Positions 1,059 through 7,033 of a stretch of DNA of 33,248 bases are shown here, piece by piece (position 1 is the stretch's first letter; each line of letters begins with the position of its first letter). The stretch covers positions 1-33,248 of the forward strand of contig MHDQ01000302.1 of NCBI GenBank assembly GCA_001803565.1. The letters run 5' to 3'. The DNA is from Nitrospinae bacterium RIFCSPLOWO2_12_FULL_45_22. GTDB lineage: Bacteria; 2-12-FULL-45-22. The notes under the pieces were generated by a model. The model worked only from the letters and a program-made list of their open reading frames with translations. It was not told the origin of the DNA and did no database searches. The translations under genes and the position numbers were made by a program.

Positions 1059-1280
1059 ATGGAGGCAAAGATTAGACCAGCATCAAGAACAGGACCCTTT
1101 AAATGCCTCAGATGCGGGAGTATAACCGCGAGTGGGTTAAAGTATTGCACCCAATGCGGCGAGAAGCTTACTATAGAATGTCCTGGCTGTAACACTACCT
1201 GGCGTTTTTATTCCTATTATCCTTACTGCCCAGAGTGTGGGACAAAGACCAGCCAGAGATACGCTGAGGCTGCTCGCTAG
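1059..1280 (+). CDS. Small double zinc ribbon protein in gas vesicle operon
   Basis: A 73-residue protein made of two zinc ribbons: C16-x2-C19-x10-C30-x2-C33 and C41-x2-C44-x12-C57-x2-C60, with a short basic N-terminus. I recognise no specific family beyond the zinc ribbon fold. It starts 4 bases after gvpG and has a purine-rich ribosome binding site overlapping the gvpG end (AAGGGGGGTGAG). Its place inside the gvp operon, together with the two other zinc-ribbon-bearing genes at 3812 and 4223, argues for a gas vesicle role such as an adaptor or regulatory scaffold; that is inference. Its Cys spacing differs from those two, so it is not an obvious recent copy of them. Confidence 0.8.
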   Translation: MEAKIRPASRTGPFKCLRCGSITASGLKYCTQCGEKLTIECPGCNTTWRFYSYYPYCPECGTKTSQRYAEAAR

Positions 1281-1673: not shown

Positions 1674-1756
1674 CTGAATGTTTGCGCTCATAGAGAATAG
1701 TTATCTGCGTGAATCTGCGTCCTAAATATAATTTAAGAGATAAAGGAACGAGACTA

Positions 1757-2680
1757 ATGCCACATCAAGGGCCAGGCTTTTTAGAAAACCAGGAGCTGCA
1801 ATTGATACTCTTCGGGGGGAAAGGCGGGAGTGGCAAGACCACCTTTGCGGCAGCCACTGCAATATATCGAGCCCAATCCAGCAAAAATAAAAAAATACTG
1901 GCCGTATCTACTGACCCGGCCCATTCCCTGGGGGATAGTTTCGGGGTCTTCATTGGGGACGAGCTTATACCCGTCAACGGTATAGAAAATCTGTGGGGGC
2001 TAGAGATAAATGCCCCGAAATTGCTGGAAGATTTCAAACAGAGACACGAGAAGGCAATCAAGAAACTGGCTGATCGTGGCACTTACTTTGACCAACAGGA
2101 TATAGCCGATTTCTTCTCCCTCTCATTACCCGGACTGGATGAAGTTATGGCCATCATAGAGATTGCCAATATCCTTAAGAATGGACAGTATGATCTGATT
2201 ATACTGGATACGGCTCCTACCGGGCATACCATTAATCTATTGGCCCTGCCCGAACAGATGGAAAAGTGGATCAAGGTCTTCGATCTGATGCAGGAAAAGC
2301 ACCGCTATATGGGGACGCATTTCACCGGTAGGAGGTATGTCAAAGATGATGCCGATGAGTTTATTGAGATGATGACCAGGGATATCGGCAGGGTGAAAAA
2401 CCTTCTTATGGATAAAAAAATAACGGAGTTTGTCCCGGTTACTATTCCAGAACCAATGAGTATATATGAGACCGAACGGCTTTTGGCGGTTTTGAAAGAT
2501 TATAAGATTTCTGTTAAAAGTATTATTGCTAACCGAGTTATTATTGATGAGGGGGTAGATTGTCCTTCCTGTCTGTCCAGAATAAGAGAAAAGGAGAAGT
2601 ATATAAGAGAGATGGAGAGAAGTTCGCTCTTTATAATCTCCTTAAAATGCCTTTATTCCCTGCCGAAGTTAGGGGGATAG
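1757..2680 (+). CDS. ArsA/Get3-family ATPase, first half; C-terminus lost to apparent frameshift
   Basis: P-loop ATPase of the ArsA/Get3 (TRC40) group. Visible motifs: deviant Walker A GGKGGSGKTT (residues about 20-29), switch I STDPAHSLGDSF, switch II DTAPTGHT and a late CPSC pair like the CxxC zinc site of Get3. Family members load and target hydrophobic membrane proteins (Get3) or energise arsenite pumps (ArsA); no arsB, arsR or arsD is nearby, so a gas vesicle assembly role is the better inference. I chose the ATG at 1757 (ribosome binding site AAGGAAC) because the upstream GTG at 1709 lies in a repeat-like tract. The last about 20 residues do not match the family; the expected C-terminal helices continue in the next frame from about 2620 (KFALYNLLKMPLFP...), so this ORF is probably one half of a two-domain protein. 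Confidence 0.8.
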   Translation: MPHQGPGFLENQELQLILFGGKGGSGKTTFAAATAIYRAQSSKNKKILAVSTDPAHSLGDSFGVFIGDELIPVNGIENLWGLEINAPKLLEDFKQRHEKAIKKLADRGTYFDQQDIADFFSLSLPGLDEVMAIIEIANILKNGQYDLIILDTAPTGHTINLLALPEQMEKWIKVFDLMQEKHRYMGTHFTGRRYVKDDADEFIEMMTRDIGRVKNLLMDKKITEFVPVTIPEPMSIYETERLLAVLKDYKISVKSIIANRVIIDEGVDCPSCLSRIREKEKYIREMERSSLFIISLKCLYSLPKLGG

Positions 2681-2730
2681 GGACCCTAAAGAAATTTATT
2701 GAGATATTGCAAGGAAATGGGGAAACATTC

Positions 2731-3756
2731 ATGAGCCCTCGGCTCACAAAGGATGATGAAAATATGTGGGATAGGAATGTACCGCATATCGATAGGCGGG
2801 GTTTTCTAACCCCGCAAAAACCATTTTCAGGAAAAGCCCCCTTAAATCGTGAATTCATCCTTTTTGGGGGCAAAGGCGGGGTAGGCAAGACTTCCCTGGC
2901 TGCCGCTACGGCCTTATGGCTAGCCAGAGAGGAGCGTAGCAAAAAAGTCCTGGCCTTCTCTACCGACCCGCCCATAGGGGATAAGATTACCCCTATAGAA
3001 GAGGTAGACAATCTTTATGCCCTGGAGATAAATGCCGCTAAATTACTGGAGGATTTTAAAGAGGAATACAGAGATGATATAAATGAAATGTTTGATAGGT
3101 TCTTGGCCGGAGGAATAGATGTCAAGTTTGATCGGGAGGTAATGACTGAGCTTATTTCCCTTGCGCCTCCTGGGTTAGATGAGATCATGGCCCTGGATAA
3201 GATTATAGATCTCAGAGATGCCCGGGAATTTGATCTGTTTATCCTGGACTCGGCTGCTACTGGACATCTACTCCGCTTCCTGGAACTGCCTGATCTGATC
3301 CGGGATTGGTTAAAAACCCTCTTCAAGATAATATTGAAATACAAGGGGATGGTACGCCTAACCAAGGTGGCTGAAAATTTGCTAAAACAGTCCAAAAATA
3401 CAAGAAAGATACAGGAAGCGCTTACAGACCCCCTCAGGAGTGAGTTTGTGGCAATAACCATCCCTGAGGCCATGGGTGTGTTGGAGATGGAAAGACTTCT
3501 ATCAGGCCTTAGTAGACTGAAGATACCCTGCCACCATATCATTATCAATATGGTCATTCCCCCAACGGATTGTAGTTTTTGCTCCTTCAAACGGAATGAA
3601 CAACAAAAGTATGTTAAGGCAATAAGAGATAACTTTGCCCGGTATCTGGTTTCCGAAATTCCCTTATTCCCCCATGAAATAAAGGAGAGAGAAAGATTGA
3701 ACGATCTTGCCGCGATGATGTATGATCCGGTCGAGGAGGTAATAAAAAGCGCCTGA
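2731..3756 (+). CDS. ArsA/Get3-family ATPase, second half with degenerate switch motifs
   Basis: Second ArsA/Get3-type domain, about 341 residues from the ATG at 2731 (weak site AAGGAAATGG upstream). The open frame extends left to at least 2560 without a stop and there encodes the missing C-terminus of the previous domain, so the real product may be a tandem protein. Walker A is intact (GGKGGVGKTS, about 46-55) and a CSFC pair is kept near the end. Switch I has lost the AHSLGDSF block (it reads STDPPIGDKI, about ten residues shorter) and switch II reads DSAATGH instead of DTAPTGH, so ATP hydrolysis may be impaired. The N-terminal linker includes a palindromic repeat (2796-2815) translated as RRGFLTPQ. 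The next gene, gvpJ, begins 55 bases downstream. Confidence 0.8.
   Translation: MSPRLTKDDENMWDRNVPHIDRRGFLTPQKPFSGKAPLNREFILFGGKGGVGKTSLAAATALWLAREERSKKVLAFSTDPPIGDKITPIEEVDNLYALEINAAKLLEDFKEEYRDDINEMFDRFLAGGIDVKFDREVMTELISLAPPGLDEIMALDKIIDLRDAREFDLFILDSAATGHLLRFLELPDLIRDWLKTLFKIILKYKGMVRLTKVAENLLKQSKNTRKIQEALTDPLRSEFVAITIPEAMGVLEMERLLSGLSRLKIPCHHIIINMVIPPTDCSFCSFKRNEQQKYVKAIRDNFARYLVSEIPLFPHEIKERERLNDLAAMMYDPVEEVIKSA
2796..2815. repeat. Perfect hairpin repeat translated inside ArsA linker
   Basis: Perfect 8-base stem (GCGGGGTT/AACCCCGC) with a TTCT loop. The surrounding 30 bases recur with one mismatch at 5839-5868 inside the second gvpF/L gene, in the same reading frame, giving DRRGFLTPQK here and DRQGFLTPQK there. 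Confidence 0.85.
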
Positions 3757-3811: not shown

Positions 3812-4180
3812 ATGGTCCTAGAAGCCAGCAGAAACTCCAGCAGTACCTTAGTAGATGTAATAGATAGGATACTGGATAAGGGATTGGTGATCAATGCCGA
3901 TATAACTGTTTCCCTGGCTGGAGTAGAGTTGCTGGGTATCAAGATAAGGGCGGCTCTGGCTTCTTTCGAGACCGCAGCTAGATATGGCTTAGAGTTTCCC
4001 TCGGGGACTAATTATGAAACCTCAGCCTGGCAAGAAGCCCGGATAGGTAAAGAGAATTGTCCGCAGTGTGATAAGAGGACGCCGGTAGAGGAGCTTATTA
4101 GCACCGGCTGCCCCTGGTGTGGATGGATAAGTGCCAAGGCCAAGACCCTGGCCCAAAAAGCCGCCCCATCAATGATGTGA
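3812..4180 (+). CDS. gvpJ: GvpJ-type gas vesicle protein fused to a C-terminal zinc ribbon
   Basis: Residues about 10-67 form a GvpA/GvpJ-type domain: [20 protein letters not shown], then [34 protein letters not shown]. The [17 protein letters not shown] segment is characteristic of GvpJ rather than of the major shell protein GvpA. GvpJ is a minor, nucleation-associated gas vesicle protein (family knowledge). After a linker, residues 83-105 add a zinc ribbon, C83-x2-C86-x13-C100-x2-C103-G-W, which I do not know from GvpJ proteins. The start has a GAGG ribosome binding site 10 bases upstream. The same ribbon pattern occurs twice in the next gene, 42 bases downstream. A basic tail follows the ribbon. 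Confidence 0.85.
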
Positions 4181-4222
4181 GGCAACTTAATTACTGGTCT
4201 GAGAGGTAAAGAAGGTGTCGAA

Positions 4223-4555
4223 ATGGTTTTAGAATTCTTTTCCATCCCAGGAGCCCTTTTAAATGAAATTGATAAATATGCCTGTCAGCAGAGGGAAAGA
4301 GAGGCCAGAAATACCTACTGGATAAGGTGTCCCAATTGCGGAAAGCAGGTAGTAAAAAGGGAATTGATCAAGAAGGGGTGTTATGTATGCAACTGGCAGG
4401 GGACTGAAGATAAAATTAAACCGGCCAATCAAGAAACCAGGGATAGGCCAAATCCTTATAAGACAAATTGTCCCCGCTGCGGAGCCCGGGTGATAACCGA
4501 CCAACTACAAGAAAATGGGTGTTATCTCTGTGGATGGAAAGCTCCAAAGGATTAG
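4223..4555 (+). CDS. Double zinc ribbon protein sharing its ribbon type with the GvpJ tail
   Basis: A 110-residue protein: a short N-terminal helix (residues 1-33), then two ribbons, C36-x2-C39-x13-C53-x2-C56-N-W and C83-x2-C86-x13-C100-x2-C103-G-W. Both share the pattern CPxCG, a basic or polar stretch, a leucine, xxxGCYxC and a final tryptophan with the C-terminal ribbon of GvpJ just upstream. I recognise no named family. The gene has a good ribosome binding site (AAAGAAGG) and sits between gvpJ and the gvpH-type gene, where haloarchaeal clusters carry other small genes. A partner that docks with or replaces the GvpJ ribbon is a reasonable inference, but no function can be assigned from sequence alone. 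Confidence 0.78.
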   Translation: MVLEFFSIPGALLNEIDKYACQQREREARNTYWIRCPNCGKQVVKRELIKKGCYVCNWQGTEDKIKPANQETRDRPNPYKTNCPRCGARVITDQLQENGCYLCGWKAPKD

Positions 4556-4638: not shown

Positions 4639-5148
4639 ATGGATGAGATGGATAGAGAAGAAGGAGAAAAAGAGATAAAAAAATCTGAAGAAGACGAGGA
4701 TCGGGAGCCTGAAGGGATAGCCGGTAATGTGCTTAAGGGATTAGGTGATATTATTCCTGGGCTGGGTGGCTTGATCAAGGGCTTGAAGAAATCGGCGGCC
4801 TTCCAGGATAGGTTGAAAGTGATAGATGCGGAGGTTGAGGCCAGGTTAAAGGGGAAAGGATTGACTGAAAAGGAAGGAGAAATCTACCGATCAAGACCGA
4901 CGGTTGCAACCCCTAAGGAGGTTCCAGTAGAGCTCTTTGATGAAGGAGATTATTGGAGGGTAATCGCGGAATTGCCCGGGATAGAAGAAAAGGATATTAA
5001 GGTTGATCTGGAGGGTGCCAGGGTATTCATATCTGTCAATAGCTCCCAGCGTAAATATCACCGGGAAATCAACCTGGCTTGTACCCCTAAAGGCGATCTC
5101 AAAAAAGTTTATAAAAATGGGATACTAGAGATCACTATAGAAAAATAA
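4639..5148 (+). CDS. gvpH: GvpH-type Hsp20 / alpha-crystallin protein
   Basis: The first about 90 residues are strongly charged, then contain a Gly/Leu-rich amphipathic segment (GIAGNVLKGLGDIIPGLGGLIKGLKKS). Residues about 95-169 form an alpha-crystallin-like domain: ELFDEGDYWRVIAELPGIEEKDIKVDLEGARVFI, ending YKNGILEITIEK. GvpH proteins are Hsp20-like gas vesicle accessory proteins that bind other Gvp proteins (family knowledge). I chose the ATG at 4639, which follows AGAAGG; the upstream ATG at 4603 lies inside the 70-base repeat. gvpK begins 8 bases after the stop. A second, shorter Hsp20 at 9233 shares the YKNG(I/L)LEITI end. Confidence 0.83.
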   Translation: MDEMDREEGEKEIKKSEEDEDREPEGIAGNVLKGLGDIIPGLGGLIKGLKKSAAFQDRLKVIDAEVEARLKGKGLTEKEGEIYRSRPTVATPKEVPVELFDEGDYWRVIAELPGIEEKDIKVDLEGARVFISVNSSQRKYHREINLACTPKGDLKKVYKNGILEITIEK

Positions 5149-6775: not shown

Positions 6776-7033
6776 ATGGAACCAACCAGAAATACCCATG
6801 CAACTTTAGTAGATTTATTGGACCGCATCCTGGATAAGGGGCTGGTGATACATGCCGATATTATCGTATCAGTGGCAGGAATACCCTTAATCGGGGTTAA
6901 TTTGCGGGCTGCCCTGGCAGGAATGGAAACGATGCTAAGATACGGTGTACTGCAGGCCTGGGATGAAGGCACCAGGGCCTGGGAACGGAGACAGAGAATG
7001 AAAGGAGAAATGGGAGTTTCTTCAGCAGTTTAG
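6776..7033 (+). CDS. gvpM: Gas vesicle protein GvpM (GvpA/J/M family)
   Basis: An 85-residue GvpA-like minor protein. It opens with [57 protein letters not shown]; the MEPT start, the IPLIGVNLRAALAGMETM core and a following W-D pair match GvpM/GvpJ-type minor proteins better than the structural GvpA, which has the [28 protein letters not shown] pattern. Minor A-like proteins are thought to help nucleation and end-cap formation (family knowledge). It starts 2 bases after the gvpL stop, with no separate ribosome binding site, so translation is probably coupled to gvpL. Unlike the gvpJ gene at 3812, it has no zinc ribbon. Confidence 0.88.
   Translation: MEPTRNTHATLVDLLDRILDKGLVIHADIIVSVAGIPLIGVNLRAALAGMETMLRYGVLQAWDEGTRAWERRQRMKGEMGVSSAV

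What the first reader, a model, noticed from the sequence alone, without database searches (positions are those of the whole stretch)
3812..4555. GvpJ with a zinc ribbon tail, next to a protein built from the same ribbon twice
The GvpJ-type protein carries C83-x2-C86-x13-C100-x2-C103-G-W. The next gene holds two ribbons with the identical spacing (C36/39/53/56 and C83/86/100/103), each followed by W. I know no GvpJ with such a tail. This suggests a gas-vesicle-specific metal-binding module that may link the nucleation protein to a soluble partner, or sense zinc or redox state. Fusion plus adjacent free copies is the classic sign of interacting parts.
Basis: partly seen in the sequence, partly recalled or inferred. 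Interest (0 to 1): 0.8.

Follow-up and report, generated by a model that had tools for sequence, protein, structure and literature searches.

The report
Gas-vesicle protein with zinc-ribbon tail
A protein thought to help start gas-vesicle assembly carries a small, probably zinc-binding tail that also occurs on its partner proteins and as a free double copy; this module turns up almost only in gas-vesicle gene clusters, in many phyla of bacteria and archaea, and I found no description of it.

Summary
GvpJ (3812-4180) ends in CX2CX13CX2C-GW, and the next gene (4223-4555) has the same ribbon twice. The tail is not rare: it is standard in a GvpJ clade found in about 17 named phyla of bacteria and archaea (unbiased samples: 8 of 36 and 8 of 16 gvp-positive genomes). 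Beyond the finding, the same ribbon ends 27 of 60 GvpM homologues (GvpA-like part, GRAM/PH-like repeats, ribbon) and sits on a GvpH in one archaeal cluster. Haloarchaeal GvpJ nests inside the ribbon clade without the ribbon. In Halobacterium that C-terminal half binds GvpG, GvpH, GvpL and GvpM fragments, and all but its last residues are essential. Best reading: a metal-stapled docking module through which GvpJ, GvpM and a soluble double-ribbon adaptor join the assembly complex. Zinc binding, partner and redox role are untested. No held paper contains both 'gas vesicle' and 'zinc ribbon'.

The parts
3812..4018 (+). GvpJ, gas-vesicle (GvpA/J/M) shell-type domain, residues 1-69
   Evidence: PF00741 E 3.8e-17; halo_gas_GvpJ over residues 9-69, 96.6 bits; lies in the GvpJ clade of the tree
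4049..4138 (+). C-terminal ribbon of GvpJ, CX2CX13CX2C-GW (C83, C86, C100, C103)
   Evidence: profile match 59.1 bits, E 2.1e-15; cysteines invariant in 40 aligned GvpJ; predicted beta hairpin and helix, pLDDT 73-75
4139..4180 (+). Short variable C-terminal tail after the ribbon, part predicted helical (residues 108-117), and stop codon
4223..4555 (+). Free double-ribbon protein (110 aa): predicted N-terminal helix 14-28, two ribbons, basic (net charge about +6)
   Evidence: model with ribbons at pLDDT 80-92; homologues in 22 of the 80 fetched loci
4319..4408 (+). First ribbon of the free protein (C36/39/53/56)
   Evidence: Profile E 7.5e-16; PF24441 DUF7560 5.3e-8 and PF17848 Zn_ribbon_ACC 2e-6, both over cut-off
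4460..4549 (+). Second ribbon of the free protein (C83/86/100/103)
   Evidence: Profile E 1.1e-15
4642..5148 (+). GvpH-like small heat-shock protein; in relative L131 this protein itself carries the ribbon
   Evidence: PF00011 HSP20 7.2e-5; L131:993-1478 has a ribbon before its HSP20 domain
6776..7033 (+). GvpM, short form without ribbon (in 27 of 60 relatives it ends in the same ribbon)
   Evidence: PF00741 5.7e-18, halo_gas_GvpM 100.6 bits
59..9541 (+). The gvp cluster context: gvpF/L (59), gvpG (782), small double zinc ribbon (about 1059), gvpO (1407), ArsA/GET3 ATPase in two frames (1709, 2560), gvpJ, double ribbon, gvpH, gvpK (5157), gvpF/L (5526), gvpM, dnaK (7071), hsp20 (9233)
   Evidence: gvpA not found in the genome, and the contig begins inside the cluster

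Best explanation
A dedicated metal-stapled docking module of one large lineage of gas-vesicle systems. Shown by sequence: the AccD-like CX2CX13CX2C ribbon is the standard C-terminus of a GvpJ clade, recurs on GvpM, once on GvpH, and as a free double-ribbon protein usually encoded directly after gvpJ, and its strong matches fall almost only in gvp clusters. Inferred: four cysteines hold one Zn2+ and make a small rigid knob joined by a linker to GvpJ's shell-type domain. Inferred: the knob faces the cytoplasm at the nascent vesicle (tip or nucleus) and binds the accessory complex, as the C-terminal half of Halobacterium GvpJ is known to bind GvpG, GvpH, GvpL and fragments of GvpM and GvpA. Inferred: the free double-ribbon protein is a soluble bivalent adaptor or competitor that uses the same contact surface and ties GvpJ, GvpM and GvpH (or two complexes) together. 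The ribbon thus most likely serves assembly and recruitment rather than catalysis or signalling.
For: Specificity: 27 of 27 matches with E<=1e-5 in 12 whole genomes lie inside the gvp cluster. Of 48 further genomes only two match strongly, both on long GvpM; the other 26 gvp-positive and 20 gvp-negative genomes give nothing better than half-length matches at E 0.001. In 344 archaeal genomes every match above 31 bits but one lies with gvp genes, and the 25-28-bit matches are unrelated ribbons. In 400 Chloroflexota-group genomes all ten matches of 47 bits or more lie in gvp clusters or, for the GvpM copy, beside dnaK. Recurrence on interacting partners: GvpJ (79 of 83 GvpJ-type ORFs with exact spacing, two more with 14), GvpM (27 of 60), GvpH (L131), free double ribbons in 22 of 80 loci, 15 of 18 scorable ones with no gvp gene between. 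All four cysteines, the second knuckle CPxCGW (W nearly so) and linker W73 are invariant or nearly so from bacteria to archaea. Published: Halobacterium J47-114 binds GvpG, GvpH, GvpL and fragments of GvpM and GvpA (PMC8716928); only 5 C-terminal residues can be removed, and residues 81-114 are cluster-specific (PMC9501494); GvpJ and GvpS stay in purified vesicles after urea and may sit at the tips (PMC11445434).
Against: No metal, binding or phenotype data exist. The free protein is absent from most clusters with ribbon-GvpJ (present in 18 of 65 scorable loci), and the window's own GvpM has no ribbon, so neither is an obligate partner. Haloarchaea build gas vesicles with a GvpJ that lacks the ribbon and canonical bacterial GvpJ lacks it too, so the ribbon is not needed for vesicles as such. 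GvpJ and free ribbons are only about 37% identical, so a shared contact surface is not proven. The shell part of the GvpJ model has no confidence and no complex was modelled. One archaeal ribbon (G595:C258) has only a DnaK gene, and no gvp gene, within the 3-kb stretch read.
Confidence: 0.5

Rival explanations
1. Passive stabiliser: the zinc ribbon only folds, solubilises or caps the hydrophobic GvpJ/GvpM before assembly and has no specific partner; the free copies are duplicated spare domains.
For: The tail has diverged freely elsewhere (acidic tail in haloarchaea, other tails in canonical GvpJ) without loss of vesicles; the ribbon is patchy on GvpM.
Against: High conservation of the second knuckle CPWCGW-SAK across phyla and the restriction of free double copies to gvp clusters suggest a specific contact; the Halobacterium C-terminal half does bind partners.
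Confidence: 0.22
2. Redox or metal sensor: the CXXC knuckles release zinc or iron on oxidation or starvation and gate vesicle assembly.
For: CXXC knuckles can be redox-active (established knowledge); many hosts of the module belong to anaerobic lineages (organism names).
Against: All four cysteines are retained in GvpJ of the aerobes Natronococcus, Natrinema and Streptomyces; no sensor or regulator gene was seen to recur in the clusters, though this was not searched for specifically; most such ribbons are structural.
Confidence: 0.12
3. Nucleic-acid contact: the AccD/ribosomal-type zinc ribbon binds RNA or DNA (for example its own gvp mRNA), tying nucleation to translation.
For: Best structural neighbours are the AccD zinc ribbon (1.7 A over 32 positions) and ribosomal zinc proteins; the free protein is basic (+6; family ribbons on average +3 and +2).
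Against: The GvpJ ribbon is neutral on average (-0.14); no fold match is significant; fusion to shell-type proteins does not suggest nucleic-acid binding.
Confidence: 0.08

Closest known systems
Haloarchaeal GvpJ (NF046090, Halobacterium pNRC200)
   Same: Same GvpJ lineage: shared motif SFETAAxYGLEFPxGT, nests inside the ribbon clade in the tree; its C-terminal half is the accessory-protein binding half (PMC8716928)
   Different: No ribbon; the Halobacterium protein has no cysteine at all; hydrophilic, often long acidic tail instead; the window protein misses the model's cut-off (96.6 of 125 bits)
Canonical bacterial GvpJ/GvpA paralogues of gvp-positive genomes in the sample round Desulfoluna
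   Same: PF00741 fold family, accessory shell paralogue
   Different: Separate branch (NLADLLERILDKGIVIAGDI...), no ribbon, and no ribbon anywhere in those genomes
AccD zinc ribbon (PF17848 Zn_ribbon_ACC)
   Same: Two CXXC knuckles on a beta hairpin; free protein over the Pfam cut-off; 1.7 A over 32 positions to 2f9i_B
   Different: Module on gas-vesicle proteins, not on a carboxyltransferase; overall Foldseek match not significant
DUF7560 (PF24441), family of unknown function
   Same: First ribbon of the free protein scores 32.9 bits over the 27-bit cut-off
   Different: GvpJ tail scores 16.8, below cut-off
Sequenced gvp clusters of Hakubella (PMC7325909) and the clusters cloned from Desulfobacterium vacuolatum and Methanosarcina vacuolata (PMC10344784)
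   Same: Hakubella (L005) has ribbon-GvpJ, ribbon-GvpM and a free double ribbon
   Different: The passages read do not mention the ribbon; whether the two cloned clusters carry it could not be checked here

Membership tests
Gas vesicle A/J/M family (PF00741) | Gas_vesicle domain over Pfam gathering score | tested here: met
   62.6 bits against 25
GvpJ (as against GvpA and GvpM) | Groups with characterised GvpJ and not with GvpM or GvpA in a tree; SFETAAxYGLEFP motif | tested here: met
   GvpM clade separate with SH-aLRT 100; Halobacterium GvpJ nests with the ribbon forms; 61 columns only, so deep forks are weak
NCBIfam halo_gas_GvpJ NF046090 | Score over curated cut-off 125 | tested here: not met
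   96.6 bits; all 33 aligned members match the model at E 0.001 or better
Zinc ribbon | Two CXXC knuckles in register on a beta hairpin | tested here: met
   Invariant cysteines; strand-strand-helix predicted in all three ribbons, pLDDT 73-92
Zinc ribbon | Binds one zinc per ribbon | not testable with these tools
   Needs metal analysis; iron (rubredoxin-like knuckles) is not excluded
Zn_ribbon_ACC PF17848 | Score over Pfam cut-off | tested here: inconclusive
   Free protein 28.3 against 24.5 bits (met); GvpJ tail not listed at E 0.1
DUF7560 PF24441 | Score over Pfam cut-off | tested here: inconclusive
   Free protein 32.9 against 27 (met); GvpJ tail 16.8 (not met)
Gas-vesicle-specific ribbon module (proposed here) | Strong profile matches only in gvp loci | tested here: met
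   one exception without a gvp neighbour within the 3 kb read, beside dnaK

The most novel reading that the evidence does not exclude
A metal-ribbon docking code dedicated to one organelle: GvpJ, GvpM and sometimes GvpH carry interchangeable ribbons that bind each other or one common receptor through the conserved second knuckle, and a soluble bivalent double-ribbon protein crosslinks them to set where and how many gas vesicles nucleate. Halophilic archaea would have replaced the zinc code by acidic tails.
Probability: 0.25. Interest if true: 0.78.

Novelty: new variant of a known kind. Interest (0 to 1): 0.58.

Why it matters
How gas vesicles nucleate and how GvpJ and GvpM act there is open. 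A discrete 30-residue module, present on two shell-type proteins and as free copies, gives a testable handle: mutate four cysteines, tag one domain, fish for partners. It also shows that a large GvpJ lineage differs from the Bacillus, cyanobacterial and Halobacterium models, which may bear on the choice of clusters for acoustic reporters, where most heterologous clusters fail and metal supply or a missing ribbon adaptor could be one reason (inference).

Tried and rejected
Rarity of the fusion: rejected, it is widespread. Chance CXXC spacing: rejected. Known described family: no Pfam, NCBIfam or PHROGs model names it and no held paper has 'gas vesicle' with 'zinc ribbon' (the library is open-access only). 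Obligate pairing of GvpJ ribbon and free double ribbon: rejected (18 of 65 loci). Mutual exclusion of free ribbon and GvpM ribbon: not seen, loci with both, either or neither occur. Fold search: nothing significant; AccD ribbon only as local match, VIA-align at most Z 2.5 to ribosomal zinc proteins. Phylum search round the window's own genome: only two genomes held.

Full report
OBSERVATION. Both proteins are at the stated coordinates with the stated spacing. GvpJ has only four cysteines, all in the ribbon. The neighbour has nine, eight of them in two ribbons. Families: PF00741 for the first and zinc-ribbon families for the second. The window is a whole contig, G000:C302, that starts inside a gvp cluster: gvpF/L, gvpG, a small double zinc ribbon, gvpO, ArsA/GET3 ATPase, gvpJ, double ribbon, gvpH-like Hsp20, gvpK, gvpF/L, gvpM, dnaK, hsp20. 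No gvpA was found in the 85%-complete genome; since the contig begins inside the cluster, it is probably missing from the assembly (inference).

HOW COMMON. A scan of the genome collection with GvpJ gave 259 relatives, and the best 80 loci match over most of its length at 64-83% identity. Of 83 GvpJ-type ORFs there, 79 have the exact CX2CX13CX2C and two more have 14 between; the other two are one truncated ORF and one without a ribbon. They come from about 17 named phyla, mostly metagenome-assembled genomes whose labels may be wrong in places. Because some search peptides came from the ribbon, I also took samples that do not depend on it. In 395 genomes of the phylum of Desulfoluna, 36 have gas-vesicle proteins and 8 have a GvpJ match running through the ribbon; two more have a ribbon on GvpM only. 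In 398 genomes of the phylum of Pelotomaculum, 16 have gas-vesicle proteins and 8 have ribbon-GvpJ. The split is clean: either 61-75% identity through the ribbon, or a match that ends before it (residues 60-84).

A 30-column profile of 20 ribbons (A1) was run on whole genomes. In 12 genomes, 27 matches have E<=1e-5, all inside the interval of the gvp locus (coordinates compared), and the next best is E 0.004 over 12 positions. In 48 genomes chosen for lacking ribbon-GvpJ, only two match strongly, both on long GvpM; the other 26 gvp-positive and 20 gvp-negative genomes give nothing better than half-length matches at E 0.001. In 344 archaeal genomes the matches above 31 bits lie with gvp genes, except one beside a dnaK gene without a gvp gene within the 3 kb read. 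The 25-28-bit matches are unrelated small zinc proteins. In 400 Chloroflexota-group genomes all ten matches of 47 bits or more fall in gvp clusters or, for the GvpM copy, beside dnaK. The 28 archaeal genomes whose GvpJ passes the haloarchaeal cut-off have no ribbon match: where GvpJ lacks the ribbon, the whole module is gone.

WHERE ELSE THE RIBBON SITS. On GvpM: 27 of 60 homologues are 241-411 aa and read GvpA-like domain, one or two GRAM/bacterial-PH-like repeats, ribbon near the very end. On GvpH: L131 has a ribbon before the HSP20 domain. Free: double-ribbon ORFs in 22 of 80 loci; of 18 scorable ones, 15 follow gvpJ with no gvp gene between, and three come after gvpM. The window's own GvpM is the short form. 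GvpJ and GvpM ribbons are 48% identical, GvpJ and free ribbons 36-38%, the two free ribbons 42%. The GvpJ ribbon is neutral, the free ones are basic.

EVOLUTION. A tree of the 60-residue shell domain (132 rows, few columns, so deep forks are weak) puts GvpM in one starred clade (100) and canonical bacterial GvpJ and GvpA elsewhere. Haloarchaeal GvpJ, ribbonless, forms a starred clade (95) nested among ribbon-GvpJ with a Streptomyces ribbon form beside it (88). The simplest reading is that the ribbon was lost or replaced in the ancestor of haloarchaeal GvpJ. The best-studied GvpJ would then be a derived form, which would explain why the ribbon went unnoticed (inference).

STRUCTURE. AlphaFold2 gives strand-strand-helix for each ribbon (GvpJ pLDDT 73-75; free protein 80-92) and no confidence in the shell part alone. 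Foldseek has no significant hit; locally the AccD zinc ribbon superposes at 1.7 A over 32 positions.

MECHANISM. In Halobacterium GvpJ, which lacks cysteine, fragment 47-114 binds GvpG, GvpH and GvpL and fragments of GvpM and GvpA (PMC8716928). Only five C-terminal residues can be removed, and residues 81-114 are cluster-specific (PMC9501494). GvpJ and GvpS remain with purified vesicles after 6 M urea and are proposed for the tips (PMC11445434). The ribbon occupies that same C-terminal position, and the proteins that carry ribbons (J, M, H) are among those that contact each other in Halobacterium. I therefore infer a metal-stapled docking knob, with the double-ribbon protein as a bivalent soluble adaptor. 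Metal, partner and effect are unshown.

LITERATURE. No held paper contains both 'gas vesicle' and 'zinc ribbon'. Six papers hold 'GvpJ' and 'zinc', and the gas-vesicle review among them has no 'ribbon' or 'cysteine'. The library is open access only, so a description elsewhere is possible.

VERDICT. A real, specific and apparently unnamed module of a large gas-vesicle lineage: a new variant of a known kind.

Noticed in passing
L011:8985-10091, L013:6380-7462, L005:5467-6204 and other long GvpM: Many GvpM homologues carry one or two GRAM/Vps36/bacterial-PH-like repeats (YLTNKRL motif) between the GvpA-like domain and the ribbon; possible lipid- or protein-binding domains on a gas-vesicle protein. 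One paper search found no mention.
   Followed up: partly
window 1059-1280: A small second zinc protein (Pfam DZR double zinc ribbon, E 1.4e-8) lies between gvpG and gvpO; close homologues with a WR(F/Y) motif occur in 13 of the fetched gvp loci.
   Followed up: partly
window 1709-3756: The ArsA/GET3-type ATPase is one ORF of about 650 aa in many relatives, but here it is split over two frames with the switch near 2620, by tblastn; a sequencing or assembly error, a pseudogene or a frameshift.
   Followed up: partly
L182:7001-9568, L183:7001-9594, L185:7001-9561: Plasmids of Natronococcus occultus, Natrinema zhouii and Streptomyces sp. SGAir0924 carry reduced clusters (ribbon-GvpJ, GvpK, GvpL, GvpM-like) with no gvpA, F, G or N annotated nearby; a gas-vesicle accessory set without shell protein may do something else.
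   Followed up: no
L007:1610-2047, L014:1610-2050, L016:1636-2130, L017:5602-5988, L024:6340-6840: Stand-alone DnaJ-type CXXCXGXG zinc domains (PF00684, tested on L007) without a J domain in gvp clusters, some of which also encode DnaK; suggests a dedicated Hsp70 branch for gas vesicles.
   Followed up: no
L006:4434, L008:406, L017:4794, L022:5179, L028:4987: Proteins of about 200-250 aa with a GvpG-like match between the ArsA-type ATPase and gvpJ, possibly a second, longer GvpG paralogue.
   Followed up: no
L135:1456-2194: Two tandem ribbon-GvpJ genes in one archaeal cluster (G744).
   Followed up: no
L204:1357-1446 (minus strand): A GvpM-type ribbon on a 70-aa open frame beside a DnaK gene with no other gvp gene within the 3 kb read; the only strong ribbon match without a gvp neighbour, possibly a decayed GvpM.
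   Followed up: partly
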